Below, piece by piece: positions 3,609-21,729 of a DNA stretch of 25,737 nucleotides; within the stretch, counting starts at the first letter, position 1; each line of letters begins with the position of its first letter. The stretch comes from a virus. Position numbers and translations under genes: made by a program. The notes beneath the pieces were generated by a model. It did no database searches. It saw only the letters and a program-made list of their open reading frames with translations, and had not been told where the DNA came from. The DNA is taken from positions 9,356-35,092 of the IMG/VR virus record IMGVR_UViG_3300002460_000102; one strand, given 5' to 3'.

Positions 3609-4547
3609 TTATGCTTCGATACCGAACTCTTTTAATATCTTTTCCTTGTTTGCGACGATCTCGCCTTGTCTAAACGGGTGATTCCAAACTGTACTTATTT
3701 GATGCCCGTAATTGTGAACGAGAACGCAGTATTTCCCCTCGCTCAGCCCGTATGTTCTCCATGTTTCGATCACGTCTTCGTGGCTATGGAACGGAACGTG
3801 CATGAACGATGCGCCGCTATAGTATTCGAGATACTTATCTACATCGAAGAACGTATCCTTGTCAAAGATAATCGTATAAAACGGTGGGTTTGTTCCCGGT
3901 CTCCAATATCCGAGTTCTTTCGTGTCCTTGTTATATACATATCCAATTCTGAACGAGAGGGCGCCGGCAAACGGTTTACACGCCTGAACTTCTTTGATCG
4001 CGTCTTTGTGGAATATATCGTCTGAATCGATGCGTGTTACATAGACATAATCCACGTCAGAAAACGATGCTTTAAGATAACTCAATGCCCTACCCAACCT
4101 TGCCCGAAGCGTCTTGTTCTTGTTGATCAGCAACTCCCTCATTCCCTTAAAGAATCCCTTTATATCCCTGGAAAGAATGGCGCGTCTTGCCATCCTCGCA
4201 ACGTTTTTGAAACCATTGGCGATTCCCTCTGCGGCAAACTTATCGTCAAAGTACATAAGTCCCTCAAATGTCATGACATACGGCATATCTATTTTTTGTA
4301 GATATTCACGCAATTCCTGCGTGGCGGGGTTAAATTCTTCTTCCGGTCGTAATGTGAGCCAGAGAATAAAAGCCTTGGCAGTCTGCTGTTGTAAACTCTT
4401 GAGTGTAAATTCCTTAAATATCTTGAGCCGATATTCGTACCAATCCTGCCCCCTGAATCCCTGATATAACCCCACCCCCGTTACCGGAATCAATACGAAA
4501 TGTAGCGACTTGACGACCGCGCCCTCTTGTTTTGTTTCTTCCGTCAT
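3609..4547 (-). CDS. GT-A-like glycosyltransferase (putative rhamnosyltransferase type)
   Basis: The early segment SLQQQTAKAFILWL and the later acidic motif RIDSDD (about residues 172-177) match the putative rhamnosyl-transferase-like GT-A group, where the DxD binds metal and nucleotide-sugar. It probably adds one sugar to the glycan whose precursors are made by the neighbouring genes. A longer frame beginning at a TTG exists, but the ATG at 4547 overlaps the preceding TGA (ATGA), a clear coupling signal, giving 312 residues. No transmembrane segment is seen, so the enzyme would act in the cytoplasm or at the inner membrane surface. The sugar donor and acceptor cannot be told from sequence. 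Confidence 0.72.
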   Translation of the reverse strand: MTEETKQEGAVVKSLHFVLIPVTGVGLYQGFRGQDWYEYRLKIFKEFTLKSLQQQTAKAFILWLTLRPEEEFNPATQELREYLQKIDMPYVMTFEGLMYFDDKFAAEGIANGFKNVARMARRAILSRDIKGFFKGMRELLINKNKTLRARLGRALSYLKASFSDVDYVYVTRIDSDDIFHKDAIKEVQACKPFAGALSFRIGYVYNKDTKELGYWRPGTNPPFYTIIFDKDTFFDVDKYLEYYSGASFMHVPFHSHEDVIETWRTYGLSEGKYCVLVHNYGHQISTVWNHPFRQGEIVANKEKILKEFGIEA

Positions 4548-5398
4548 TGTAGAAAGTTTGTTAATTTTCCCCTCCAATGATAACTCGCCTCTTTATTCGC
4601 ATGACCTCTGTTTTTAAGTTTTTTTAATAGTTCGATCGTTTTTGCAATCGTTGGCGCGTAATCTATTCTCGGGTACTGAACCCTCGTAATCGGATACTGA
4701 CCGAGAAGAATCGATTTCGCCGTTACTTCGCTGAATCCGTCAAACTTATTCAATCTCAATCCGCATTGGTAGCCACTAATCTCTCTGTCGAATTGCTCGT
4801 TTGGTACGAAACCTTTGTATTGTATATTATGATGACTCGGCTTATCAATTCCATATACGTAAAAGAAAACATCAGGTACTTTAGGTGCGATCTCGTTTTC
4901 CAAGGTCGACAATCCATATTCGTCTTCCCTGCTCTTATGAACGCACATGAAAACCTTAGGATTTGGCTGACACTTATAACTTATCTGATACTTATCCGCG
5001 CCACCGAAGAAACTCGGCTTGATATGCGACGGGATTCCCTTTTTAATCAATTCCAATTCCTCTATGATATTCTCGCAAAAATGAATCGCCTTCTCGCGCT
5101 TAATCCAGAAAGTCCAATGGTTGGACAATTGTAAGATATCACTTCCGCACCAGAATACCATTTTCGGACCGCGGTGAATCAAGAACTTTATATAATCGAT
5201 CGGATGGTAAAGTCCTACGAATATCGCCACATCTCGTATGTTACGAAAAGACCACTTCGGAAGCCCGGTCTTTTTAAGCAACTCCTCCTCAAAATTCGCA
5301 ACCGACGAAGAACAACAAAGATATGTATTTAGTCGGTCGGTGTTCTTGGGATAGCCGTAAACATGACTCCATATTTTTCCCAACTCGTATTCGGCCAT
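4544..5398 (-). CDS. GT-B-like glycosyltransferase (GT4-like)
   Basis: This 284-residue protein has the donor-binding C-terminal half of a GT-B glycosyltransferase. Residues 213-238 contain GLRLNKFDGFSEV followed by AKSILLGQYPIT, the pattern in which the Glu region contacts the nucleotide-sugar. PKVFMCVHKSREDEYG near 147-162 fits the start of the C-terminal Rossmann domain. It is shorter than typical GT4 enzymes (about 350-400), with a reduced N-terminal acceptor domain. The chosen ATG gives a 70-base overlap with the upstream methyltransferase, unusually long for this operon; no better ATG lies downstream, so the exact start is uncertain. The stop overlaps the next glycosyltransferase start as ATGA. 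Confidence 0.7.
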   Translation of the reverse strand: MAEYELGKIWSHVYGYPKNTDRLNTYLCCSSSVANFEEELLKKTGLPKWSFRNIRDVAIFVGLYHPIDYIKFLIHRGPKMVFWCGSDILQLSNHWTFWIKREKAIHFCENIIEELELIKKGIPSHIKPSFFGGADKYQISYKCQPNPKVFMCVHKSREDEYGLSTLENEIAPKVPDVFFYVYGIDKPSHHNIQYKGFVPNEQFDREISGYQCGLRLNKFDGFSEVTAKSILLGQYPITRVQYPRIDYAPTIAKTIELLKKLKNRGHANKEASYHWRGKLTNFLQ

Positions 5399-5970
5399 TC
5401 TTCGTGTGTTAATTTATGGTGAACGACGTACCACCCTTTATGATTTAAAAGCGTTGTGTAGTCCCGCGCCCAATGGAAGTTTACCAATTTCCCGTATTCC
5501 GAGATATCGTACCATTCTACGAATATAATCGCCTTCTTGGCGACCCGCACCAATTCATTCACAACCCTCGCTATCTTGTTTTTGTCAACGTATAGCATAA
5601 CCGCGTCGGACAAAATAACATCAATGGATTTATCCTCAAACGGCAACCCCTTGGTAAAATCTCCAACGATAAATTCTCCAGACAACTTCTCTCTTGCTAT
5701 CTCTATCGCCTTTTCGTTTGCGTCTATCCCGATAACCGATACGTTCGAGAATAACGCTTTTATCAAATACAAATTCGGGCCGCAATTACAACCGACCTCA
5801 AGAACGGATCGCGGGCTTAATTCGCGCATCTTATCGGTTATCAGTTTTCTGTGGGGGTGGCTAGTTGATTTCCAATAATCCTGTATCCAATTTTCTCCCT
5901 TAGCTTCCCAATCCCTCTTATTATCTTTTATCTCCCTGTTTTTCCAATACTCAAATGATTGTGCCGTCAT
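5329..5970 (-). CDS. Class I SAM-dependent methyltransferase
   Basis: Residues 56-64 (VLEVGCNCG) are the SAM-binding motif I. An acidic residue at the end of the second strand (GIDAN, about 81-85) would bind the ribose, and GDF at 103-105 is the adenine-contact motif. The 213-residue size fits small-molecule or sugar methyltransferases. The ATG at 5970 overlaps the dehydratase stop as ATGA, preferred over a GTG four codons upstream. Sitting between a nucleotide-sugar dehydratase and glycosyltransferases, it probably O-, N- or C-methylates a sugar, but the substrate is inferred from context only. Confidence 0.82.
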   Translation of the reverse strand: MTAQSFEYWKNREIKDNKRDWEAKGENWIQDYWKSTSHPHRKLITDKMRELSPRSVLEVGCNCGPNLYLIKALFSNVSVIGIDANEKAIEIAREKLSGEFIVGDFTKGLPFEDKSIDVILSDAVMLYVDKNKIARVVNELVRVAKKAIIFVEWYDISEYGKLVNFHWARDYTTLLNHKGWYVVHHKLTHEEWPNTSWEKYGVMFTAIPRTPTD

Positions 5971-6821
5971 TTTATAATCCACATGTCATCAACTTTAACC
6001 GCCCTTTTCTCCTCCTCCTCGGTCATCAAGATCTCCGACATCTTTTCCCCCTCGTTCGGGTGGGTAAATACGATATCGAGAGGTTTCCCGGATAGTTTTA
6101 TCATCATCTTGGCGAGATCGACAATCTTCATGGAAACACCCATATCCAATACGAATATCTCGCCGCCCTCTCCGATCTCTGTCGCCTTTAAAACCAAATC
6201 AGCCGCCTCATAAATTCCCATCCAGTAACGTTCCATGTCGGGATGAGTAACTGGTAATGATTTATTCTCCTGAATACATTTCTGAAAGATTGGGACAACA
6301 CTTCCCCGGCTTGCCATCACATTCCCGAATCGAACGACAATAAACTTCGTTCCATATTCGTTGTTGCTTCGCAAACACATATCTTCACATTCTTTCTTCG
6401 TTTTACCCATTACGCACACAGGATTAACCGCTTTGTCTGAAGAAATAAGAACAAACTTCTCTACGCCACAATCTTTCGCACACATAGACACGACCTCCGT
6501 TCCCCATACATTATTTTCATACGCCTCGGTCGGATACCGCTCCATAAGAACTACGTGTTTATACGCCGCGGCATGGTATACGATATTCGGTTTAAAGAAC
6601 GTAAACACCTCCCGTATTGACGACAAATCGCGTATATCTCCAATCACATAATCAACATCGCATTGCTCTTTCAACTCTTCATAAATATCAAACAAACCCG
6701 ATTCGTTATTGTCGAGCAACACAAGGAGTTTCGGTTTGAGTTTCGCTATCGTTCGGGAAAGTCCACCCCCGATCGATCCGGCGGCTCCCGTAACTAAGAC
6801 AGTTTTATTTGAAAAATCCAT
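5967..6821 (-). CDS. Nucleotide-sugar 4,6-dehydratase-like extended SDR (CapD/WbpM soluble domain type)
   Basis: TGAAGSIG at residues 11-18 is the NAD-binding glycine motif of an extended SDR. HAAAYKHV at 83-90 and SSDKAVNP at 127-134 are hallmarks of the polysaccharide-biosynthesis group containing UDP-GlcNAc 4,6-dehydratases (CapD, WbpM, PglF, FlaA1/PseB). The usual catalytic tyrosine of YxxxK is a methionine here (M138, with K142), as is known in WbpM/PglF-type enzymes. At 284 residues it has only the soluble catalytic domain and no membrane helices. The expected product is a 4-keto-6-deoxy UDP-sugar, a substrate for the aminotransferase encoded immediately upstream. It overlaps that gene by 17 bases. 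Confidence 0.85.
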   Translation of the reverse strand: MDFSNKTVLVTGAAGSIGGGLSRTIAKLKPKLLVLLDNNESGLFDIYEELKEQCDVDYVIGDIRDLSSIREVFTFFKPNIVYHAAAYKHVVLMERYPTEAYENNVWGTEVVSMCAKDCGVEKFVLISSDKAVNPVCVMGKTKKECEDMCLRSNNEYGTKFIVVRFGNVMASRGSVVPIFQKCIQENKSLPVTHPDMERYWMGIYEAADLVLKATEIGEGGEIFVLDMGVSMKIVDLAKMMIKLSGKPLDIVFTHPNEGEKMSEILMTEEEEKRAVKVDDMWIIK

Positions 6822-7932
6822 GTATGGTTTTTATAACGTAGTCGACTTCGCTTATGTGCATCTCCGGATACAAAGGCAACCTTGTGATTTCCGCCGCCAT
6901 CGTGTCTGTAACGAGAAGATCGAAATGACTCAAATTAAGTCCTTTCATGCGGTGGTTGGGAATAGTGTCTCGTGTGAGGGTTTCCACGCATTTTTTGGTC
7001 AAGTATGCTGCAAATTCAGCCCTGTTTTTAACCCTAATGTGAAACTCTTGCCACACTCTCCCGGGAGAATCGTGTGGAAGTATCAATGGCGTGTCGGCGA
7101 GCCGATAAAGATATATATTCGCAATATCCTTTCGCGCGTTTAAGAGTTGTTTAAGATACTTGAATTTTATATTCAGGAACGCGGCGTTTAAGTTAGATAA
7201 CCTCGATTTCCAAGCCCATTGCATTTCCTCGGGCTGAGGATAGTCGTTCCGATCTACGCTTAACTGATGAACGTTCCAATGGTTTCTCAGTAGACAAATC
7301 TTTTCGTATAGTTCCCGGCTGTTTGTGGTTACCATACCACCATCGCATAAACCACCCATAAGCTTCGCGGTGTTGAATGAGAAACAACCCAGATGTCCAA
7401 ACGCGCCCGCCTTTATTCCTCCCTGGGTTGCGCCGACCGCCTGGCAAGCATCTTCCACAACAAATATCCCTTTCTCCGATGCAATATCGGTGATTCTATC
7501 CATATCGCACATTGAACCCGTATAGTGAACCGGAACAATCGCTTTCGTTTTGCTTGTGATTGCCCCCTCCAACAGATCGACGTTCATTTGTTCATCTTCC
7601 CCAACATCGATAAGAATCGGAGTGGCGCCGGTATGAATGATCGCCTGAATCGTGGCAATGAACGTATTTGAAACCGTAATCACCTCATCTCCCGGACCGA
7701 CACCCAATGCGAGTAACGACAAGAAAAGCGCGTCGGTTCCGCTGTTCACACCGGCTGCGTACTTCGTTCCGATATACTTCGCAAACCTCTTTTCCAAATC
7801 CCATAAATCCTTTCTCAGTGTTAGTTGCCCGGTAGATAAGCACTTTTGGAGAGAGTAATCGATCTCGTCTTTGTGCGACTGATAGTAGCGACGGTAACTG
7901 GAATTGATAAAGTCAACTTTAAAATTTTTCAT
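6805..7932 (-). CDS. DegT/DnrJ/EryC1/StrS-family sugar aminotransferase
   Basis: This 375-residue protein is a fold-type I PLP enzyme of nucleotide-sugar pathways. SGTDAL at 64-69 binds the PLP phosphate, EDACQAVGA at 160-168 carries the Asp contacting the pyridine nitrogen, and SFNTAK followed by GG at 185-194 holds the Schiff-base lysine K190. The family transfers an amino group, commonly from glutamate, to keto-sugars made by dehydratases such as the one encoded next. The gene follows the split transketolase after an 82-base gap, the only sizeable gap inside the glycan cluster. No Shine-Dalgarno is obvious before the ATG. Amino-sugar product identity (4-amino or 3-amino) cannot be assigned. 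Confidence 0.93.
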   Translation of the reverse strand: MKNFKVDFINSSYRRYYQSHKDEIDYSLQKCLSTGQLTLRKDLWDLEKRFAKYIGTKYAAGVNSGTDALFLSLLALGVGPGDEVITVSNTFIATIQAIIHTGATPILIDVGEDEQMNVDLLEGAITSKTKAIVPVHYTGSMCDMDRITDIASEKGIFVVEDACQAVGATQGGIKAGAFGHLGCFSFNTAKLMGGLCDGGMVTTNSRELYEKICLLRNHWNVHQLSVDRNDYPQPEEMQWAWKSRLSNLNAAFLNIKFKYLKQLLNARKDIANIYLYRLADTPLILPHDSPGRVWQEFHIRVKNRAEFAAYLTKKCVETLTRDTIPNHRMKGLNLSHFDLLVTDTMAAEITRLPLYPEMHISEVDYVIKTIHGFFK

Positions 7933-8014
7933 ATAAACCTACCGTCTTTCCCCATTATTCTTTTCTCCCAACATCGACTTTTAATGAACCAGATACTAAT
8001 TTTATCTTTCCAAA

Positions 8015-8515
8015 CTACAGTCGGATATACGAGGGTTTTTCCGACTGATACGTTTCGATAATTGTTTGCCGAACCTCCTCGTTTGTTTTCGGAACAAAGC
8101 AATCCATATATGGCTTTAAGTGATATAAATCTTCATCATCAAACACCATGTTATGACTGAAGCCCAAAAAACGGTATTTCTCGCTTCCCTTTACGCCGAG
8201 AAGTTTTACGTTCGCTTTGTGTAACGCGATACCATTTCGTACCATCTCGAACGGTCGGAAGGCGACAAAATTTATCATGCTGTATAAATACGGCTTCATG
8301 CCCGATAAAGCCATTCCCGCCGCGATAAGCACGGTCGATTGCTCGGTAACTCCGAAATTGTAGAATCTATCCGGGAATCTTTTAGAAAACTCCTCGACAT
8401 AATTGAATCCTACATCCGGGATAATTAGACAAATAGCCTTATCCTTTTCGGCAAGTTCAATAAGAGTATCGATAAACGTTCTGCGAGAATCTTGCTGTTT
8501 GATTATTTCACCCAT
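8015..8515 (-). CDS. Transketolase pyrimidine-binding subunit, lacking the C-terminal domain
   Basis: These 166 residues cover only the Pyr domain of a transketolase. GVTEQ near 55-59 contains the glutamate (E58) that activates thiamine diphosphate. The protein stops at PSYIRL, where typical C-terminal transketolase subunits (about 300 residues) continue into a further domain. Only 82 bases remain before the next gene, so that domain is absent. In frame beyond the TAG there are just 19 more codons before TAA, so readthrough would not restore it. The ATG at 8515 is preferred to a TTG two codons earlier; it overlaps the partner subunit by 8 bases, as expected for a heterodimer. Confidence 0.85.
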   Translation of the reverse strand: MGEIIKQQDSRRTFIDTLIELAEKDKAICLIIPDVGFNYVEEFSKRFPDRFYNFGVTEQSTVLIAAGMALSGMKPYLYSMINFVAFRPFEMVRNGIALHKANVKLLGVKGSEKYRFLGFSHNMVFDDEDLYHLKPYMDCFVPKTNEEVRQTIIETYQSEKPSYIRL

Positions 8516-9296
8516 TTTCAAGTTCGGCTTTCGCCTTTAAGTATTCTTCCCCCGACAGGTTTTTGTAGTGAAAAAAATTATTGTTTTCCATGAAAGAAAC
8601 TCCCTTGCCCTTGATTGTATCTGCAATCATAACCATCGGAGCTTCTTCGTTTTCGCTCATTCTTTCCAGATAATCGACAACCGTATCTATTTGTTCGGTG
8701 TTGTGTCCATCTACGCCCATCAGATTCCACATCATAGCTACCCACTTCTCCCGGAGATCCCCGAGATTAAGAACGGAATCGGTGGGCCCCATCGCCTGAA
8801 GCCCGTTATTATCTACAATCACAACGAGATTGTTTAATCTATGGTGCGCCGCGATTAAGGCGCTTTCCCACGTCGTTCCTATCGCCATTTCCCCGTCGCT
8901 CATAAGACAGTAAACCCTCCCCTTTTCTCCTTTTATTTTCTTGGCGAGAGCCATGCCGACCGCCGCCGGAAATCCAAGCCCCATGCTCCCACCCGCAAAC
9001 TCGCACCCCCAGAATCCCAAAGGCTCTACCAGTCCGATATACTTGCTTCCGTCTTGGCAGAAAGTATCGAGATCTTTTTCGGGTATGATACCGTGTTCTG
9101 CCGCAAGGGCGTATGCCGTCGCGGCGACCCAGCCCTTCGATATAACCAATCTATCGATCGCACGATCGCACTTATTAAATAAAACAGTCAGAATATCCAC
9201 GCAACTAAAATTGCTCCCAATATGCGAGGTTTGCGCCTTGTATACCATGTCCAAAACCTTTAACCGTATCTTTTTCGCCCTCTCTACGTATGTCAT
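8508..9296 (-). CDS. Transketolase thiamine-diphosphate-binding subunit
   Basis: This 262-residue protein is the N-terminal half of a split transketolase. SDGE at 133-136 and the closing VDNN at 161-164 make the TPP/Mg-binding motif (usually GDG...N). SHIGS and SKGW are further transketolase signatures. Together with the Pyr subunit encoded next it would move two-carbon ketol units between sugars. Split transketolases are known in surface-polysaccharide and aminoshikimate-type clusters, for example beside an aminotransferase. The start overlaps the upstream methyltransferase stop as ATGA. Whether it serves a branched or unusual sugar, or simply feeds the pentose-phosphate pathway, is open. 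Confidence 0.92.
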   Translation of the reverse strand: MTYVERAKKIRLKVLDMVYKAQTSHIGSNFSCVDILTVLFNKCDRAIDRLVISKGWVAATAYALAAEHGIIPEKDLDTFCQDGSKYIGLVEPLGFWGCEFAGGSMGLGFPAAVGMALAKKIKGEKGRVYCLMSDGEMAIGTTWESALIAAHHRLNNLVVIVDNNGLQAMGPTDSVLNLGDLREKWVAMMWNLMGVDGHNTEQIDTVVDYLERMSENEEAPMVMIADTIKGKGVSFMENNNFFHYKNLSGEEYLKAKAELENG

Positions 9297-9907
9297 CGTT
9301 TTTGGCAGAACGCTACTATCGTCGGGAATCGGTACTCATAGAACGGAAATAAAATACTTCGCATCTCCGTTATATGTACTTTCCCGTACGGATTTAATAA
9401 ATTCTTTACATCGACTTTCTCGAAAGACCAAATATGTCGTTCTCCGTCTACCTCGCCAGCTTCGGTTTCTCCTTTCGGAACCGATATCGCAAGAATCCCG
9501 CCGATCTTTAATGAACGGAAAGTTTCCCCAACAAACCGTTCGGGGAACTCCAAATGTTCCATAAGTTCTCCGGCGATCGCGTAATCGAAATAATTATCGG
9601 GGAACATATTTTCGTATACATCGCCATATAGATAATTTATCTCTGGGCACGTTTTTGCGAGGAACTCCATAGATTCTCTGGCGCAGTCCAATCCCCATAT
9701 ATCTGATGTCGGGTACTTCTTTTTTGCGAGTATGGGGGCAAGAGAATCGAGACACCCCAAGTCGACAAATCGCCCACCCCGGAATCTACTCAGCAACTTA
9801 TTCCAGCGATCAATGTCATAAGAGTTGGCGCCGTCAATGCTTCGCTGTTTAAATATACAATCGTACTCTTTTCCGGTGTTCAACGCCGACTCACGAAGTC
9901 GTTTCAT
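9293..9907 (-). CDS. Class I SAM-dependent methyltransferase
   Basis: FVDLGCLDS at residues 47-55 is motif I, D74 in GLDCA is the expected ribose-binding acidic residue, and GELMEHL at 113-119 is the UbiE/Methyltransf_11-type motif IV. LKIGGIL at 133-139 is the post-motif loop. Length (204) fits the small-molecule group. It starts on the last A of the sugar-transferase stop (TAATG) and ends in ATGA with the transketolase, so it is tightly coupled to both. The substrate is probably a sugar or lipid-linked sugar, from context only. It is unlike the other methyltransferase of the cluster, so the two probably modify different positions. Confidence 0.82.
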   Translation of the reverse strand: MKRLRESALNTGKEYDCIFKQRSIDGANSYDIDRWNKLLSRFRGGRFVDLGCLDSLAPILAKKKYPTSDIWGLDCARESMEFLAKTCPEINYLYGDVYENMFPDNYFDYAIAGELMEHLEFPERFVGETFRSLKIGGILAISVPKGETEAGEVDGERHIWSFEKVDVKNLLNPYGKVHITEMRSILFPFYEYRFPTIVAFCQKR

Positions 9908-10401
9908 TATTTAAAAATCTTTCCCACTATTTTTGTAAATGTCCGCCAGATAATCCACGCGTCCAAAAACCAACTCTTATTCTGAACATAAAAAATCTGA
10001 AGAACTATTTTGATCGGTTTTATCTTAGTCCAATAGTCGTACGAGGAATCAACGCTTTGCTGAAGCATCTTTTCCTCCTCAAAAAAGTGAAGCGAAGCGA
10101 GGTCGGTTAGCCCGGGCCTTACACTGAGAATGACGCTGTGCAAATCCTCTGGTATTACACCAATCGATTTTTCCTCCTCAGGTCTCGGCCCTACAATCGC
10201 CATATCTCCTTTGATGATATTCCAGATTTGCGGCAGTTCGTCTATTTTAAAAGTGCGGAGAAACTTACCGAAACGAGTATATTGGTCCTCTTGGGCGAAC
10301 GAACTTGTCTTGTCCGTTCCCTCTTTTAAGGTGCGGAACTTGAACATCTTAAACGGCTTCCCGTTTTTTCCCACCCGTAGAGATGAGTAAAAGATACCCA
10401 T
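9907..10401 (-). CDS. Sugar-phosphate transferase catalytic domain (monotopic PGT type) without membrane anchor
   Basis: RVGKNGKPF at 9-17, KFRTL at 21-25, KIDELPQIW at 52-60 and GDMAIVGPRPEE at 65-76 are the conserved blocks of bacterial sugar transferases that move a sugar-phosphate from UDP-sugar to undecaprenyl phosphate. D54-E55 correspond to the catalytic Asp-Glu dyad of PglC-type enzymes. The family normally starts with a re-entrant membrane helix about 30 residues before this point; here an in-frame TGA a few codons upstream of the ATG rules out an extension. Two hydrophobic stretches near the C-terminus could still touch the membrane. This is the first gene of the leftward operon, with a consensus promoter ending 8 bases before its ATG. 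Confidence 0.87.
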   Translation of the reverse strand: MGIFYSSLRVGKNGKPFKMFKFRTLKEGTDKTSSFAQEDQYTRFGKFLRTFKIDELPQIWNIIKGDMAIVGPRPEEEKSIGVIPEDLHSVILSVRPGLTDLASLHFFEEEKMLQQSVDSSYDYWTKIKPIKIVLQIFYVQNKSWFLDAWIIWRTFTKIVGKIFK

Positions 10402-10409
10402 AAGGTTGT

Positions 10410-10438
10410 ATTGTAAATCAACGATTTTGCGTTGTCAA
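10410..10438 (-). promoter_or_regulatory. Leftward sigma70-type promoter for the glycan/packaging operon
   Basis: Reading leftward, TTGACA (10438-10433) and TACAAT (10415-10410) are separated by exactly 17 bases. The predicted start lies within about 1-3 bases of the first ATG at 10401, so the mRNA would be leaderless. The -35 box overlaps the left arm of the 23-bp palindrome. Confidence 0.75.
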
Positions 10439-10459
10439 ATGTCCAATTATTGAACATTT
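10437..10459. promoter_or_regulatory. 23-bp palindromic operator candidate between divergent promoters
   Basis: The two 11-bp arms (starting AAATGT, ending ACATTT, centre at 10448) match at 10 of 11 positions; only 10443 against 10453 differs. It overlaps the leftward -35 box and ends 7 bases before the rightward -35 box. This placement fits a dimeric repressor or activator that switches between the two operons. The binding protein is unknown; the small HTH protein at 11574 is one candidate. Confidence 0.6.
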
Positions 10460-10602: not shown

Positions 10603-11499
10603 ATGAAGGATAAATATGTAGATAATAGCGGCGATCGAAAGTATTTCGCTATGATCCCGTATTATGTCGTAAATCACTCGTGCGCATACGAGCAAAGCCT
10701 CTATCTCGTAATGAAACGAATCGCAAGCGAGAACGGGACCTGTTGGGCTTCCCCGGAATATATCGGGAAAAGCATGGGCTGCTCAAAGAACACGGTTATT
10801 AAATATCGAAAGTCGTTGGAAAAGCGCGGTTGGATAAGAATGATAGGGCAAAGGAAGTCGGGGAAGACATCCCAACTAGTACGCGAATACGAAATCGTCG
10901 ATCTCTGGGAAATAAACCTCGCGTACTATAAAAGCAAAAAGGTGTCAATGGTTGACACCTTAAAGGGCGAAAGGTGTCAACTGGTGACTGGAAAGGTGTC
11001 ACCAGTTGGTAACGAAGAAGAATATATATACAAAGATAATACAGTGGCTACGCCACAGGAGTTTTCCTTTAAGAACTATATCGAGAAGATGAAGCAATCG
11101 GCTCAGAAGCATATTCAAATAATCGTTCTTTATTGGGAAGGGAAAGGTTTTACTTTCGATAGTGTCGATATGGCTCGGAAGGCGTTAAAAAGAGAGTTCC
11201 GCCCGGCGACCAACTTGGTTGATTACGAACTACCGAAAATCGAATCCACGATCAAATTCTTAAAGAACGAGTATGACAAAAAGGGATTGTCATGGACACT
11301 CGAAACGGTGCATAAGAAAATCGACGATCAACCCGATAAACCGCAGAATCGTCTTTGTGCTTTTTGTTTAGAAAAAGACGCAACGGTACTTGTAAAGATG
11401 TCCGGCGAGAAACTTCGGTGGTGCGGGAAGTGCCATACGGGAATTGAGGCGGTAGACAAGAAAGCGGTGGTGGCAAGCGTAAATAGACCCGATTTATAG
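10603..11499 (+). CDS. Replication initiator with winged-helix domain and C-terminal zinc ribbon
   Basis: The first about 100 residues resemble the HTH_36-type winged helix of plasmid and phage initiators: WASPEYIGKSMGCSKNTVIKY is followed by a second helix and KRGWI, the usual wing entry. A variable linker of about residues 113-142 is the part whose DNA carries the iteron array. The C-terminus has four cysteines at 252, 255, 274 and 277 (CAFC and CGKC), a zinc ribbon. It is the first gene of the rightward operon after a structured leader, and SSB and exonuclease genes follow. By analogy with lambda O, the protein would bind the repeats inside its own gene and recruit replication proteins. 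The helicase or primase partner is not in the window. Confidence 0.72.
   Translation: MKDKYVDNSGDRKYFAMIPYYVVNHSCAYEQSLYLVMKRIASENGTCWASPEYIGKSMGCSKNTVIKYRKSLEKRGWIRMIGQRKSGKTSQLVREYEIVDLWEINLAYYKSKKVSMVDTLKGERCQLVTGKVSPVGNEEEYIYKDNTVATPQEFSFKNYIEKMKQSAQKHIQIIVLYWEGKGFTFDSVDMARKALKREFRPATNLVDYELPKIESTIKFLKNEYDKKGLSWTLETVHKKIDDQPDKPQNRLCAFCLEKDATVLVKMSGEKLRWCGKCHTGIEAVDKKAVVASVNRPDL
10939..11030. repeat. Iteron-like array and AT-rich tract inside the initiator gene (candidate origin)
   Basis: The decamer AAGGTGTCAA occurs at 10939-10948, inverted at 10952-10961, direct at 10971-10980, and with one end change at 10993-11002. The first two copies form a perfect 10-bp inverted repeat with a 3-bp spacer. 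A second perfect inverted repeat with 11-bp arms pairs 10978-10988 with 10998-11008. Direct copies are 32 and 22 bp apart, close to whole helical turns. The AT-rich run AATATATATA follows at 11021-11030 and could be the unwinding element. This is the layout of lambda-type origins embedded in the initiator gene. Confidence 0.65.
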
Positions 11500-11527: not shown

Positions 11528-11536
11528 GATACATGG

Positions 11537-11564
11537 TTGACAACATTTGACATATAGATATAAT
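11537..11564 (+). promoter_or_regulatory. Consensus promoter of the small HTH gene
   Basis: TTGACA (11537-11542) and TATAAT (11559-11564) are both perfect, with 16-bp spacing. The ATG at 11574 begins 9 bases after the -10 box, so the transcript would be almost leaderless. The spacer contains ACATTTGACA, also present at the leftward promoter (10433-10442, other strand). Confidence 0.75.
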
Positions 11565-11573
11565 TCAAGAGAA

Positions 11574-11768
11574 ATGAAAAGATCAACAAAAGCAAGAAAC
11601 GTGGCGCAGCAAGAGGAGATGATAAAATTACGAAACACCATAGACCCGATTACCGGAATGTATTACACGTTACAGTCGATCGGGGATAAATATGGACTAT
11701 GCAGAGAGCGTGTTCGGCAGATTATCGGGAACACGGGATTCAAAAAAGTTTATCCAAGTAAAAAATGA
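11574..11768 (+). CDS. Small helix-turn-helix protein (sigma-70 region 4-like)
   Basis: This 64-residue basic protein ends with YTLQSIGDKYGLCRERVRQI, the region-4 sigma-type helix-turn-helix that reads -35 boxes, followed by a lysine-rich tail. No other sigma region is present. It could be a transcription regulator, an anti-sigma-like decoy or a small DNA-binding protein. The ATG at 11574 is chosen because an upstream in-frame TTG lies inside the promoter. Its own promoter has perfect hexamers and shares a 10-mer with the leftward operon promoter, so autoregulation and control of the late operon are attractive but unproven. Confidence 0.62.
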   Translation: MKRSTKARNVAQQEEMIKLRNTIDPITGMYYTLQSIGDKYGLCRERVRQIIGNTGFKKVYPSKK

Positions 11769-15146: not shown

Positions 15147-15376
15147 CGATTGCTGTGATTGGAAACAATAATATAGTGTGGTGGGTAACCCCGCAGAGCT
15201 GGAGCGGGAGCGGGAGCTGGAGCTGGAGTAGGAGTGGGAGTAGGAGCGGGAGCTGGAGTAGGAGTGGGAGTAGGAGCGGGAGCTGGAGTAGGAGTGGGAG
15301 TAGGAGCGGGAGCTGGAGTAGGAGCTGGAGCTGGAGCTGGAGTAGGAGTAGGAGTAGGAGCGGGGGCGGTTCGTAA
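15143..15376 (+). CDS. Ser-X dipeptide repeat protein encoded by a hexanucleotide repeat
   Basis: After 18 ordinary residues (to VTPQ), almost the whole protein is serine alternating with glycine, tryptophan or arginine, encoded by 28 copies of a GGAGNN-type hexamer. The frame is open only because TAG triplets in the repeats fall out of frame; a neighbouring frame would be Gly-Ala/Val but has no start. The ATG overlaps the previous stop as ATGA, and 77 codons end before the metalloprotease gene. It could be a flexible, aromatic- and arginine-rich linker-like protein, perhaps a nucleic-acid binder, or only a DNA repeat that happens to be open. Function unknown. Confidence 0.4.
15199..15366 (+). 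repeat. Purine-rich hexanucleotide tandem repeat
   Basis: About 28 hexamers of the form (T/C)(A/G/T)GGAG-like purine units run here. A perfect 30-bp higher-order unit, starting CTGGAGTAGG, occurs three times at 15223-15252, 15253-15282 and 15283-15312, then degrades. The plus strand is nearly all purine with frequent GG and GGG runs, so G-quadruplex or triplex formation and slippage are likely. Confidence 0.9.
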
Positions 15377-17916: not shown

Positions 17917-18309
17917 ATGAAACTTGAAACAATAAAGAAAAAAGGACAGAATTATTACATTAAATACCTGAAGAGAAAGTTGGACGAGCTCTGGTCTCTG
18001 TATGTACGGAAAAGAGATGGATATTCCTGTGTTATCTGCGGGTCAAAAAAGAAACTTCAGAATGGGCACCTCATTAGGCGCGGGAAGTGGTCGGTAAGGT
18101 ATAATGAGTTTAATCAGAATGCAAAGTGCTCGCGACATAATTTTTTACACAACGAATATCCGGAATACTATACCGATTGGTTTATTAAGAAATTCGGCGC
18201 AAAGAAGTATAATGAATTAGTAGAACTCTCTAAAATAAAAAAGCAGTTTTCGGTTTCTGAATTGGAAGCCATGCTTGAGAAAATAAAATCTCGTATACTA
18301 AGAATATGA
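17917..18309 (+). CDS. ninG: NinG/Rap-like HNH recombination nuclease
   Basis: LWSLYVRKRDGYSCVICGS followed by NGHLIRRGKWSVRY is the start of the lambda NinG (Rap) family, structure-specific endonucleases that resolve Holliday and branched junctions. The HNH core is present: CVIC, the GH pair, and the later KCSRHN segment. The usual second cysteine pair is replaced by C..H. The C-terminus, with FGAKKYNELVEL, is also typical. 130 residues is a little shorter than NinG. Its stop overlaps the peptidase gene as ATGA. Fits with the SSB and exonuclease as a recombination module. Confidence 0.82.
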   Translation: MKLETIKKKGQNYYIKYLKRKLDELWSLYVRKRDGYSCVICGSKKKLQNGHLIRRGKWSVRYNEFNQNAKCSRHNFLHNEYPEYYTDWFIKKFGAKKYNELVELSKIKKQFSVSELEAMLEKIKSRILRI

Positions 18310-19379
18310 AACTCCTTACATCCCGAAATACAGGTGTACGCGATAGTGTACGTTCGACAGACTGGCGAGCAGGAGGAGAAAGCGGGATAGCATTTGAGTC
18401 TGTTATTCCGAACGGAGACTGGTCGCCTTATATTGGACAGGGAGAACATCAGAGCGACCCACAATTTGATACGAAAGCCTGTGTATCTTTCTCCGCTCTC
18501 AACAGCATAGAAACACAGATAAATAGACTTATTCTGACAGGCACAATACTTCCGCAAACCCTCGTAGGACTGAAGGACTTAGGATTTATTAAAGACGGGG
18601 TATTTAACGCGAGCGATAGATTTATAGCAAAACTATCCGGTACTACCACGCAAGGCAATTGGGCTTGGAATGTCTGGGATACCATACGAACTCAGGGATT
18701 GGTTCCTGAATCGGATTGGTCATTCACTCCGGAGATGGACTGGAATGAATATTATGCAGACATATCTTTAACGCTTATCGCGAAGGCGAAAAAGTTCTTA
18801 GAATTATTTAAAGTGAATTACGAGTTTGTTTATTTAAACGATGGGCAAGATACTTTCTCTTCTGTTCTTAAACAACATTTACACCAAGCTCCGCTTCAGA
18901 TACTAACCCCCGTATGCCAGCCGTGGACAAGAGACGACCCGATAACCACCTGTGGTTCTCGCGCAAGTCAACACGCTACTATGCTCTATAACTACCGTGA
19001 TAATGCGTGGTGGAATATACAAGACCAGTACGAGCCGTATCTTAAAAGATTGTCTTGGGGATATGCTATTTTGACGGCGATAAAGGGTGTTGTTAATCAG
19101 ACGGGAAATAGTTTACAAGAGTTCCACTGGACTTTCTTAAAAGATTTGAGCTTTGGACAAACGGGAACGGATATTAAGGCTCTGCAAAATGCGCTAAAGA
19201 TACTCGGATTCTTCCCGAAGACAATACAAAGCACGGGCTACTATGGACTTATAACAAAAAAAGCGGTATCAAAATTCCAATGGGCGTATTCAGTTGCTTC
19301 TGCTCCGATACTATGGTGGAACGGCGGGAGGCTCGTAGGTCAAGCTACCCGTGAGAAACTAAACTCCTTATTTATCTAA
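18306..19379 (+). CDS. Papain-like cysteine peptidase with peptidoglycan-binding domain (putative endolysin)
   Basis: This 357-residue protein has a possible C1-type peptidase domain: the cysteine at 59 in KACVSFSALNS, His223 in SQHATMLYNY, and a polar pair near 237-240 as the third catalytic residue. Residues about 283-326 (FGQTGTDIKALQNALKIL onwards) form a PG_binding_1 repeat, which anchors lysins to the wall. No signal peptide is seen, so export would need a holin. It would cleave peptidoglycan peptides. It lies in the early rightward operon, while the holin-like and transglycosylase genes are on the other strand. A virion-associated hydrolase is the main alternative. Confidence 0.72.
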   Translation: MKLLTSRNTGVRDSVRSTDWRAGGESGIAFESVIPNGDWSPYIGQGEHQSDPQFDTKACVSFSALNSIETQINRLILTGTILPQTLVGLKDLGFIKDGVFNASDRFIAKLSGTTTQGNWAWNVWDTIRTQGLVPESDWSFTPEMDWNEYYADISLTLIAKAKKFLELFKVNYEFVYLNDGQDTFSSVLKQHLHQAPLQILTPVCQPWTRDDPITTCGSRASQHATMLYNYRDNAWWNIQDQYEPYLKRLSWGYAILTAIKGVVNQTGNSLQEFHWTFLKDLSFGQTGTDIKALQNALKILGFFPKTIQSTGYYGLITKKAVSKFQWAYSVASAPILWWNGGRLVGQATREKLNSLFI

Positions 19380-19388
19380 CTTCTTATG

Positions 19389-19416
19389 CAACAGATAATA
19401 AAAACTCAATCTGTTG
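19389..19416 (+). other. Hairpin ahead of the membrane-anchored HNH gene
   Basis: CAACAGAT (19389-19396) and ATCTGTTG (19409-19416) form a perfect 8-bp inverted repeat with a 12-nt AT-rich loop, 9 bases before the strong Shine-Dalgarno AAGGAGG (19426-19432). It may end transcription weakly or tune translation. Confidence 0.35.
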
Positions 19417-19437
19417 GCACATAACAAGGAGGATAAT

Positions 19438-19977
19438 GTGGACTATGTATGGTTAGTGCTCGGTTTCTTGTTCCTCGCTTTCATTCCTGCCTCGCTCAAG
19501 GCCAAACGGCGATACTGGTTCTGTAACTTCTGCGGAGGAACGAAGAATTGGCTGGATAAGAAGGGGGATGGAGCCTGCCGTAAGTGCGGAACACCAATCG
19601 GGACGGCAAAGGTTAAACCATTGTCTGAGAGCGAGAAAGAACTAATCCGGAAGAGAGATGAATGGATATGCGTGAATTGTGGACGTAAGATTTACAAGCA
19701 CAAGAAGCAAAACGTTCATCATCTTCGCGCTCGCCACTTTGGCGGAACAAATGACCCTGGCAATCTCGCCCTGCTCTGCGAAAAGTGCCATAAGGACGTA
19801 ACTCCTGGCTGGCAAGAAGCGCTAGACGCTTACCGCGCAGGAAACAAGAACGCCTTTAAGGAATGGGCTGAGGAAAAGGCGTATCAGACGCATCAATATG
19901 ACGAGGAAATGCGCTCTAGAATGTTGATTGCGTATGGCGTTGTGAAGGAAAGAGAGCGACTGAGGAATAAGAAATGA
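19438..19977 (+). CDS. HNH endonuclease with N-terminal membrane helix
   Basis: The GTG at 19438 follows AAGGAGG by 5 bases, a much better start than the in-frame TTG upstream. Residues 4-18 (VWLVLGFLFLAFIPA) form a transmembrane helix, followed by CNFCGG and CRKCG, a zinc ribbon, and a C-terminal HNH nuclease core with CVNCGRK, VHHLRARHFGG and CEKCHK. HNH proteins of this kind are usually soluble homing or restriction nucleases, so a membrane anchor is unusual. It is followed by a terminator overlapping its stop codon. Confidence 0.8.
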   Translation: MDYVWLVLGFLFLAFIPASLKAKRRYWFCNFCGGTKNWLDKKGDGACRKCGTPIGTAKVKPLSESEKELIRKRDEWICVNCGRKIYKHKKQNVHHLRARHFGGTNDPGNLALLCEKCHKDVTPGWQEALDAYRAGNKNAFKEWAEEKAYQTHQYDEEMRSRMLIAYGVVKERERLRNKK

Positions 19978-19999
19978 CTCCATTTGGGGTCTTTTTATT
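19976..19999 (+). terminator. Intrinsic terminator after the membrane HNH gene
   Basis: GACTCC (19976-19981) pairs with GGGGTC (19986-19991, one G-U pair) around ATTT, followed by TTTTTATT. The stem includes two bases of the stop codon. Confidence 0.75.
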
Positions 20000-20030
20000 G
20001 GTATAATTAAATAGCGAAAGGATGGTGGGC

Positions 20031-20180
20031 ATGAAAGTATGTGCTTCGCCAACAGAGTGGCAATGTAGTGCTTGTGGACATCTCAATCCTGCAAGTGCCT
20101 GCCGTTGCCAACAATGCGGGAAGGAACTGGGTTCTCCTCGCGGCATTGTAGCCCCCCTATTGAAAGGGGGGTTTTTATAA
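20031..20180 (+). CDS. RanBP2-like zinc-ribbon microprotein
   Basis: This 49-residue gene starts with a good AAAGGATGG ribosome binding site, 5 bases upstream. WQCSACGHLNPASACRCQQC has the W-x-C-x2-C...C-x2-C layout of a RanBP2-type zinc finger. A TATAAT is present at 20002-20007 without a clear -35. Its last codons (from about residue 41) are the two arms of the terminator hairpin, so its C-terminus PLLKGGFL is read from terminator DNA. The role is unknown; RanBP2-type fingers often bind RNA or protein. Confidence 0.68.
   Translation: MKVCASPTEWQCSACGHLNPASACRCQQCGKELGSPRGIVAPLLKGGFL
20152..20176 (+). terminator. Intrinsic terminator inside the zinc-microprotein gene
   Basis: CCCCCC (20152-20157) and GGGGGG (20166-20171) form a 6-bp GC stem with an 8-nt loop, followed by TTTTT. 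It lies in the last codons of the zinc gene and just before the next -10 box. Confidence 0.8.
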
Positions 20181-20186
20181 TATAAT
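20160..20186 (+). promoter_or_regulatory. Promoter nested in the terminator, for the next HNH gene
   Basis: TTGAAA (20160-20165) lies partly in the terminator loop and TATAAT (20181-20186) follows after 15 bases; a second overlapping TATAAT lies at 20176-20181. The HNH ATG at 20194 begins 7 bases after the -10 box, so the transcript would be leaderless. Spacing is short, so this is moderate. Confidence 0.45.
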
Positions 20187-20193
20187 AAGAAAT

Positions 20194-20532
20194 ATGGGCA
20201 AATGGATTCATGTGATGGTGAAAAGAGATATACCTAGAATGAAGGGAATCTGTTTAAATTGCGGAGAAGTGGAGTTGATAAAAAAGCACGGAGTTTACTT
20301 GTGCAGAAAAAGTCAGAAGAGACCAGAGTGGCAAGGGCATGGAAGGTGGTACAAGAAATTTAGAGAGAATGCGTGTTCTCTGTGTGGATTTGTCGCAGAA
20401 CATATTTCCCAACTAGACATAGACCATATAAACGGAAACCATAAAGACAATTCGCCGTATAACATAAGAACACTTTGTTCCAACTGCCACAGGCTCAAAA
20501 CCTACAAAGAAAGGACTCTACGGAGTAATTAA
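20194..20532 (+). CDS. HNH endonuclease
   Basis: This 112-residue protein has CLNCG near the start, then CSLCG, LDIDHINGNHKDN and CSNCHR, the zinc and catalytic parts of an HNH nuclease (the DHINGN His acts on the phosphodiester). The size is like small freestanding homing or group-I-intron-type HNH nucleases found in phage genomes. It has no Shine-Dalgarno and its ATG starts 7 bases after a TATAAT. It may be a self-spreading element rather than a needed phage gene. Confidence 0.85.
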   Translation: MGKWIHVMVKRDIPRMKGICLNCGEVELIKKHGVYLCRKSQKRPEWQGHGRWYKKFRENACSLCGFVAEHISQLDIDHINGNHKDNSPYNIRTLCSNCHRLKTYKERTLRSN

Positions 20533-20564
20533 GTGCGGGGATTTTTATTTACGTGAAGGAAAAA

Positions 20565-20580
20565 GACACTTGTGAGTGTC
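20565..20580. terminator. Hairpin after the HNH gene
   Basis: GACACT and AGTGTC form a perfect 6-bp stem with a TGTG loop. A U-rich tail occurs on both sides (CCTTTCTT on plus, TTTTTCC on minus), so it could terminate in either direction. Confidence 0.5.
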
Positions 20581-20630
20581 CCTTTCTTCGAACCAGCCCT
20601 TTTAAGAACGCTTGAGTTATAATGGAAGAT

Positions 20631-21182
20631 ATGAGAATAAGAAATAAAGAGAAACAAAGAATCTGGTCGATAGAATTTTACAGAAGGAACAGAGGCAAAA
20701 TAAACGAACTGCGTCGCTATAAAACGAGGAACGATGAAAAATACAGGGAGCAAGGAAAAGAAAGGGGGAGGAGATTTAGGGCAAGAAACGGTGTTTATCT
20801 ATCAATAGCAGAGAACTTCGTTTTCGAAAAACTAATAAAAATAAAACCAGCGCAAAGCGCAAAGGAGCGTAGGAGAAAGCGCTACAAGGAGGATGGTGCG
20901 TATAGGGATAGAGAAATACAACGCATAAAGAAATACTCTATCATGAAAGCAATGATGAGGTGCGGGGACGCATTGTCAGATTTTATTTGGGATAAATGGG
21001 AAGATATGAAGAAAATAAATGATTTTCGTTGTATAATGTGTGGTAAAAAAGAACCAGAAATAAAACTATCCATAGACCACATTATTCCATTAAGCAAACG
21101 AGGGACTAACGACATGGCGAACATCCAACCGCTTTGTAGGAGTTGTAATTCGAGAAAGAACAATAAGGTTATTACAAACTAA
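20631..21182 (+). CDS. HNH endonuclease with basic N-terminal region
   Basis: This 183-residue protein has a strongly basic, probably helical N-terminal region (about residues 1-100, rich in RKE) and a C-terminal HNH core: CIMCGKK, SIDHIIPLSKRG and CRSCNSRK. The basic region would bind DNA. The ATG at 20631 is 7 bases after a TATAAT that contains an earlier in-frame ATG at 20622, so the later one is preferred; no good -35 is seen. Its stop codon lies in the arm of the following terminator. Confidence 0.82.
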   Translation: MRIRNKEKQRIWSIEFYRRNRGKINELRRYKTRNDEKYREQGKERGRRFRARNGVYLSIAENFVFEKLIKIKPAQSAKERRRKRYKEDGAYRDREIQRIKKYSIMKAMMRCGDALSDFIWDKWEDMKKINDFRCIMCGKKEPEIKLSIDHIIPLSKRGTNDMANIQPLCRSCNSRKNNKVITN

Positions 21183-21205
21183 AAAGCTAGCAAGTAGCTT
21201 TTTAG
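21179..21205. terminator. Bidirectional terminator hairpin between convergent gene groups
   Basis: CTAAAAAGCTA and TAGCTTTTTAG form a perfect 11-bp inverted repeat around GCAAG. The A and T runs in the arms give a U-run in both directions. It overlaps the HNH stop codon. The following stretch to 21300 holds only GC-rich inverted-repeat pieces and no gene. Confidence 0.75.
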
Positions 21206-21300
21206 TCTCCAGAGGGAGGTTGTTTTACGAAGTTTAAGGTTTTCCCCTCCTAAACGCTTTAGTCAGTCTTTGATTACTGCGTATTAAAGTATATCACAAC

Positions 21301-21729
21301 CTATACCCCTTTTGTCAAGTGAGGGCAATGTCCATAGTTAGCTTTCGCGAGATTACAATTCCAACACAAAATCTGTATATTTGAAGGATAATTGTTCCTT
21401 TTTATCCATACATGTATTGCCGTTCCACCAATTTTATCCCTATGACCGGCGCCGTCGTTATTAACGTGGTCGAAAGTAAGAAATTCGTACGTAGATTCGC
21501 CACAGCAATTGCATTTCCCGCCATATCTTTCGATGGCACCTTTCCTAGATTTTGTATGCCATTTCTTAGTATTATTCTTGATATTTTGTTTATGTTCAAG
21601 ATACCAATCGTGAAAATTTTGTTTTACTCGCTCTTTATTATTTTGCGCCCACCTCTTACTTAGGAATTTCATCCTATCTTTATGCTTGGCATAGTACTCC
21701 TTATAGTATTGTTTATCTTTTATTATCAT
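21301..21729 (-). CDS. HNH endonuclease
   Basis: This 142-residue protein has a basic N-terminal region (EYYAKHKDRMKFL) and then an HNH core: CNCCGES, TFDHVNNDGAGH and CWNCNLAK. This is the DHVNNDG variant seen in many phage freestanding HNH genes. Its ATG has no Shine-Dalgarno, and an A/T-rich promoter-like region lies close upstream. It points towards the previous three HNH genes, so the four are convergent with a terminator between them. Confidence 0.84.
   Translation of the reverse strand: MIIKDKQYYKEYYAKHKDRMKFLSKRWAQNNKERVKQNFHDWYLEHKQNIKNNTKKWHTKSRKGAIERYGGKCNCCGESTYEFLTFDHVNNDGAGHRDKIGGTAIHVWIKRNNYPSNIQILCWNCNLAKANYGHCPHLTKGV

What the first reader, a model, noticed from the sequence alone, without database searches (positions are those of the whole stretch)
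10939..11030. Origin-like iterons inside the initiator gene
Four copies of a decamer (one inverted), two perfect inverted repeats and an AT-rich run occupy the DNA coding for the linker between the wHTH and the zinc domain. Direct copies are 32 and 22 bp apart, near whole helical turns. This is the lambda-O-type design in an unrelated-looking initiator.
Basis: partly seen in the sequence, partly recalled or inferred. Interest (0 to 1): 0.6.

Follow-up and report, generated by a model that had tools for sequence, protein, structure and literature searches.

The report
Phage replication origin inside initiator gene
A bacterial virus appears to carry its replication start site inside the gene for the protein that recognises it, as phages lambda and SPP1 do; the case is well supported by sequence but is a new example of a known design.

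Summary
In the linker-coding part of a 298-aa winged-helix (HTH_36) phage replication initiator lie four copies of AAGGTGTCA (three direct, one inverted), forming dyads GTCAA-NNN-TTGAC (10944-10956), GTCAA-NNN-GTGAC (10976-10988) and a half-degenerate third (10998-11010). They are 32 and 22 bp apart and are followed by the least stable 20 bp of the gene (11022-11041). The copies are read in two frames and on both strands, and 0 of 5000 synonymous shuffles give even three copies, so the repeat is a DNA feature. Three divergent initiators (L002, L014, L030) carry the same GTGTCAA-NNN-TTGACAC dyad at the same place, two with a TATATA run after it. Eight other initiators have different repeats there, against 0 of 76 control ORFs. 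In one homologous pair, synonymous changes are nearly absent over the array (1/37 vs 67/172, p=3e-6). The best reading is an iteron + DUE origin bound by the initiator encoded around it. The GC-skew test is uninformative, because skew follows gene strand. "Unrelated-looking" is overstated: the protein matches PHROG replication-initiation and O-like families. Lambda/Stx O and SPP1 oriL are known precedents. New member of a known kind; origin activity is untested.

The parts
10603..11499 (+). Replication initiator gene, 298 aa: wHTH (model residues about 25-98), unstructured linker (101-157), helical part, C-terminal CxxC/CxxC
   Evidence: HTH_36 PF13730 2.3e-11; PHROG_270 replication initiation 3.6e-13 and O-like PHROGs 678, 391; low-confidence AF2 model, wHTH pLDDT about 60-77, linker about 25
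10939..10961 (.). Iteron/dyad 1: AAGGTGTCAA-TGG-TTGACACCTT, 10-bp arms, perfect
10971..10990 (.). Iteron/dyad 2: AAGGTGTCAACTGGTGACTG, core GTCAA-CTG-GTGAC; copy read in another frame (R-C-Q)
10993..11012 (.). Iteron/dyad 3: AAGGTGTCACCAGTTGGTAA, right half degenerate; also holds one arm of the inverted repeat 10978-10988/10998-11008
11014..11041 (.). AT-rich putative DNA unwinding element GAAGAAGAATATATATACAAAGATAATA
   Evidence: least stable stretch of the gene; lowest 0.03-0.1% of the window
11533..11564 (+). Possible additional initiator half-site ATGGTTGACA overlapping the -35 of a perfect TTGACA-16-TATAAT promoter downstream of the initiator gene (tentative)

Best explanation
Bases about 10939-11041 are the phage's replication origin, placed inside the coding sequence of its own initiator. 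The wHTH domain, probably as a dimer, binds the three GTCAA-NNN-TTGAC-type dyads, which are 32 and 22 bp apart and so lie on about the same face of the helix. The resulting complex strains and opens the adjacent AT-rich element at 11014-11041, and the C-terminal part recruits the replicative helicase, probably the host's. Shown here: the repeats, their DNA-level (not protein-level) nature, the AT-rich element, the family of the protein, and recurrence of the arrangement in divergent initiators. Inferred: binding, dimerisation, melting, helicase recruitment, and that replication really starts here.
For: Copies lie in two reading frames (KVS/RCQ/KVS) and one is inverted, so protein selection cannot explain them; 0/5000 synonymous shuffles reach even three copies. 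L002, L014 and L030 have the same dyad in the same linker of 17-22%-identical initiators; L002 is also read in two frames; L002 and L014 are followed by TATATA runs. Other HTH_36/PHROG-type initiators (L038, L040, L041, L048, L050, L051, L052, L056) have different repeat arrays just after the wHTH; L038, L040, L041 and L048 also have their least stable 20-mer just downstream. The same test finds the annotated lambda ori iterons in O at gene position 348, against 336 here. Control ORFs: 0/76, after excluding one antisense ORF of a positive gene. L050 vs L051: 1/37 synonymous differences over the array against 67/172 elsewhere (Fisher 3.4e-6) and 36/82 in the N-terminal wHTH part, which hardly changes in protein. 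Lambda/Stx O and SPP1 oriL in gene 38 are experimentally known analogues (PMC7466680; PMC6316719).
Against: No binding or replication data. No close homologue of the window gene was found, so conservation of these exact repeats is not tested. Three dyads is a small array. Many HTH_36 hits, probably mostly not initiators, lack repeats, and two Enterococcus phage relatives (L037, L044) show no significant array. GC skew is uninformative. The RNA folds well (z=-4.8), so an RNA role is not excluded.
Confidence: 0.87

Rival explanations
1. The repeats are operators: the wHTH protein (or a phage repressor) binds its own gene for autoregulation or roadblock, without an origin function.
For: Dyads are typical of wHTH operators; the half-site ATGGTTGACA recurs at 11533 over a perfect promoter -35.
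Against: The array sits mid-gene, away from promoters, next to the gene's least stable DNA; the same position and AT-rich neighbour recur in other initiators, including lambda O where it is the origin.
Confidence: 0.06
2. The inverted repeats act as RNA hairpins (attenuation, translational pausing or an antisense terminator).
For: z=-4.83 for RNA folding; the 10-bp hairpin followed by T-rich DNA scores as a minus-strand terminator.
Against: Any DNA dyad folds as RNA. The property shared across initiators is repeat arrays, several of them plain direct repeats without an evident hairpin (for example L041 TAGTTCCG x4). No Rfam family matches.
Confidence: 0.03
3. A protein-level low-complexity or duplicated linker, or chance.
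For: Linkers are repetitive in some relatives (L014 KVSxKVS in a single frame).
Against: Copies in different frames and orientation give different peptides here; 0/5000 synonymous shuffles; synonymous suppression in L050/L051.
Confidence: 0.02

Closest known systems
Phage lambda / Stx phage ori in gene O (O-some, 4-6 iterons plus AT-rich tract)
   Same: Dyadic iterons in DNA coding for the stretch after the N-terminal DNA-binding domain (gene position 348 in lambda, 336 here); AT-rich element immediately downstream (PMC7466680)
   Different: Different iteron sequence; lambda iterons are 18 bp at 20-24-bp spacing (here 32 and 22); the C-terminus here has CxxC pairs; no lambda P-like loader was identified among the ORFs tested
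SPP1 oriL in gene 38 (G38P replisome organizer)
   Same: Direct repeats and AT-rich DUE within the initiator gene of a non-lambdoid phage (PMC6316719)
   Different: SPP1 has a second origin (oriR) and its own helicase gp40 and loader gp39; only one array was found in this record
HTH_36 / PHROG_270 phage and prophage initiators with intragenic arrays (L002, L014, L030, L048, L050/L051)
   Same: Same gene layout; L002, L014 and L030 share the same GTGTCAA-NNN-TTGACAC dyad
   Different: L002, L014 and L030 proteins are only 17-22% identical to the window's over the full alignment; copy number and spacing differ
DnaD / DnaD-like helicase loaders
   Same: Weak similarity in the wHTH: DnaD_N 0.001, below the curated cut-off; PHROG_186 2e-11; 2v79 among weak fold hits
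   Different: No DnaD C-terminal domain was detected

Membership tests
wHTH (HTH_36) phage replication initiators | HTH_36 domain above curated cut-off | tested here: met
   43.7 bits vs cut-off 25
wHTH (HTH_36) phage replication initiators | Similarity to annotated phage replication initiation families | tested here: met
   PHROG_270 3.6e-13, 19658, 428, 678, 391
Initiator-embedded iteron origins (lambda ori type) | Several repeats in the coding DNA between DNA-binding and C-terminal domains | tested here: met
Initiator-embedded iteron origins (lambda ori type) | AT-rich unwinding element adjacent to the iterons | tested here: met
   11022-11041, least stable 20-mer of the gene
Initiator-embedded iteron origins (lambda ori type) | Selection on DNA rather than protein | tested here: met
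   Mixed frames and shuffles for the window; synonymous suppression only in a relative pair
Initiator-embedded iteron origins (lambda ori type) | Initiator binds the iterons and replication starts there | not testable with these tools
   Needs EMSA/footprinting and a replication assay
Lambda O protein family proper | Close sequence relationship to lambda O | tested here: inconclusive
   Only partial matches to O-like PHROGs, over the wHTH; no phage record matches over most of its length
DnaD helicase loader | DnaD N- and C-terminal domains | tested here: not met
   DnaD_N 19.6 bits, below cut-off 27; no C-terminal domain hit

The most novel reading that the evidence does not exclude
Intragenic, synonymously constrained iteron origins are the general rule across HTH_36/PHROG_270-type initiators of several phyla, with iteron sequence changing alongside the wHTH, so that origins of uncultivated phages can be read directly from initiator genes; in addition the initiator may repress the promoter at 11537 through a repeated half-site.
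Probability: 0.35. Interest if true: 0.5.

Novelty: new member of a known kind. Interest (0 to 1): 0.4.

Why it matters
It locates the likely origin of an uncultivated phage with no close relatives in the collections searched. It also shows that the lambda-style overlap of origin and initiator gene extends to divergent winged-helix initiators (Bacteroidota prophages, gut phages and others) and can be found by a simple codon-shuffle test.

Tried and rejected
Close relatives: protein-seeded searches for the initiator (viral contigs and genome contigs) and for the terminase and exonuclease (viral contigs) gave none; no DNA similarity among phages. GC skew as an origin signal: rejected, because it follows gene strand (left arm -0.176, + genes +0.176, right minus-strand genes -0.124). 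Promoter inside the array: not found there; the perfect promoter lies downstream. Chance hits: most of the 16 dyad loci have no array and no initiator around them, and L029 is a two-copy array outside an evident initiator; these were set aside. The dyad is rare in Bacteroidota genomes (3 of 395, including the seed). Structure prediction from one sequence was poor; four sequences gave a moderately confident wHTH and a disordered linker. Fold search gave only weak winged-helix matches. The AT-rich minimum is not next to the array in L030, L050, L051, L052 and L056, so a simple nearest-neighbour DUE is not universal.

Full report
Setting. The window is 9356-35092 of a 35,280-bp IMG/VR virus record. 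Terminase and sugar-metabolism genes run leftward; a set of early genes runs rightward from 10603. The first rightward gene, 10603-11499, encodes a 298-aa protein with an HTH_36 domain (2.3e-11). Its best PHROG matches are replication-initiation families (PHROG_270, 3.6e-13; also O-like 678 and 391, and DnaD-like 186). Downstream genes match exonuclease and SSB families. No helicase or loader was identified among the ORFs scanned, although not every ORF was scanned.

The repeats. AAGGTGTCA occurs four times in 10939-11002, three direct and one inverted. Together with their right-hand halves they make three dyads: GTCAA-TGG-TTGAC (10944-10956), GTCAA-CTG-GTGAC (10976-10988) and GTCAC-CAG-TTGGT (10998-11010, degenerate). 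Starts are 32 and 22 bp apart. Immediately downstream, 11022-11041 is the least stable 20-mer of the gene and among the lowest 0.03% of the window.

DNA or protein? The direct copies are read as K-V-S, R-C-Q and K-V-S, and the inverted copy as V-D-T-L, so one DNA word is spelled in two frames and on both strands. Among 5000 synonymous shuffles, none gave even three copies of any 9-mer in 130 bp. The only other dense repeat in the record is the low-complexity tandem repeat near 15.2 kb. The linker is the unstructured part of the predicted model (residues 101-157, pLDDT about 25; the model is low confidence overall).

Relatives. No close homologue was found. A DNA search for GGTGTCAANNNTTGACACC in viral contigs gave 16 loci. 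Most look like chance, but L002 and L014 carry multi-copy arrays of the same dyad in the linker of a wHTH protein. A two-site pattern added L030. Their proteins match replication-initiation PHROGs and are 17-22% identical to the window's. L002 also reads its copies in two frames, and L002 and L014 have TATATA runs after the array. The L014 gene is also found, 100% identical, in a Solirubrum genome (L028).

Generality and controls. The codon-shuffle test recovers the annotated lambda iterons in gene O at gene position 348. It also finds strong arrays of other sequences in phage relatives L038, L040 and L041, and weaker ones in L039, L042, L043 and L045; two Enterococcus relatives (L037, L044) have none convincing. 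In a family search of Bacteroidota genomes with HTH_36, 5 of 30 loci (L048, L050, L051, L052, L056) are strongly positive. All five arrays start 36-69 nt after the end of the HTH match. Of 77 control ORFs from the neighbourhoods only one scored, an antisense ORF over the positive gene L056. The loci are a mix of initiators and other wHTH proteins, so 5 of 30 is not a rate for initiators.

Constraint test. L050 and L051 are 73% identical in protein. Over the array region (gene positions 280-420) 1 of 37 comparable codons differs synonymously, against 67 of 172 elsewhere (Fisher 3.4e-6) and 36 of 82 in the N-terminal part, where the protein hardly changes.

Mechanism. In lambda and SPP1, initiators bind intragenic iterons next to an AT-rich tract that opens. 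In lambdoid phages O is a dimer and the origin lies in the middle of O (PMC7466680). In SPP1, gp38 binds repeats of oriL within gene 38, next to an AT-rich DUE (PMC6316719). The present locus has the same anatomy, so the same working mode is inferred.

Rivals. Operator-only use and RNA hairpins are weaker. The array is mid-gene and next to the DUE candidate, and the shared feature across relatives is the array rather than pairing. RNA folding is strong (z=-4.83), as it would be for any perfect DNA dyad. A half-site, ATGGTTGACA, recurs at 11533-11542 over the -35 of a perfect promoter, so the initiator may also regulate downstream genes; this is tentative.

GC skew. The cumulative minimum is at window 10376, but skew is -0.176, +0.176 and -0.124 over leftward, rightward and again leftward genes. 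It follows gene orientation and does not point to the origin independently.

Verdict. It is a new member of a known kind. What remains undone is any test of binding or replication.

Noticed in passing
window 15196-15364: G-rich tandem repeat (30-bp unit GGAGTGGGAGTAGGAGCGGGAGCTGGAGTA, 5.7 copies; 6-bp sub-unit), open in several frames, with the window's strongest GC skew (0.47).
   Followed up: no
window 11533-11564: Perfect TTGACA-16-TATAAT promoter right after the initiator gene; its -35 lies in a 10-bp copy of the iteron half-site (ATGGTTGACA). TGTCAAATGT at 10433-10442, at the leftward promoter-like site, is repeated inverted at 11543-11552.
   Followed up: partly
window 3609-10401 (minus strand): A block of sugar/surface-modification type genes (nucleotide-sugar epimerase, aminotransferase, methyltransferase by PHROG; apparent transketolase halves and sugar transferase by eye) inside a phage record.
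   Followed up: partly
window 11547-11768 (+): Small protein with a Sigma70 region 4-like HTH (8.5e-6) directly after the initiator.
   Followed up: no
window 17917-21729: Several HNH-type proteins close together, one NinG/Rap-like (17917-18309, PHROG_5034 1.9e-18) and one HNH endonuclease (19414-19977); others at 20194-20532, 20622-21182 and 21301-21729 by eye only.
   Followed up: partly
L050 and L051 (Bacteroidota genomes): A pair of related HTH_36 genes with near-absent synonymous change over the repeat array, a good test pair for intragenic origins.
   Followed up: yes
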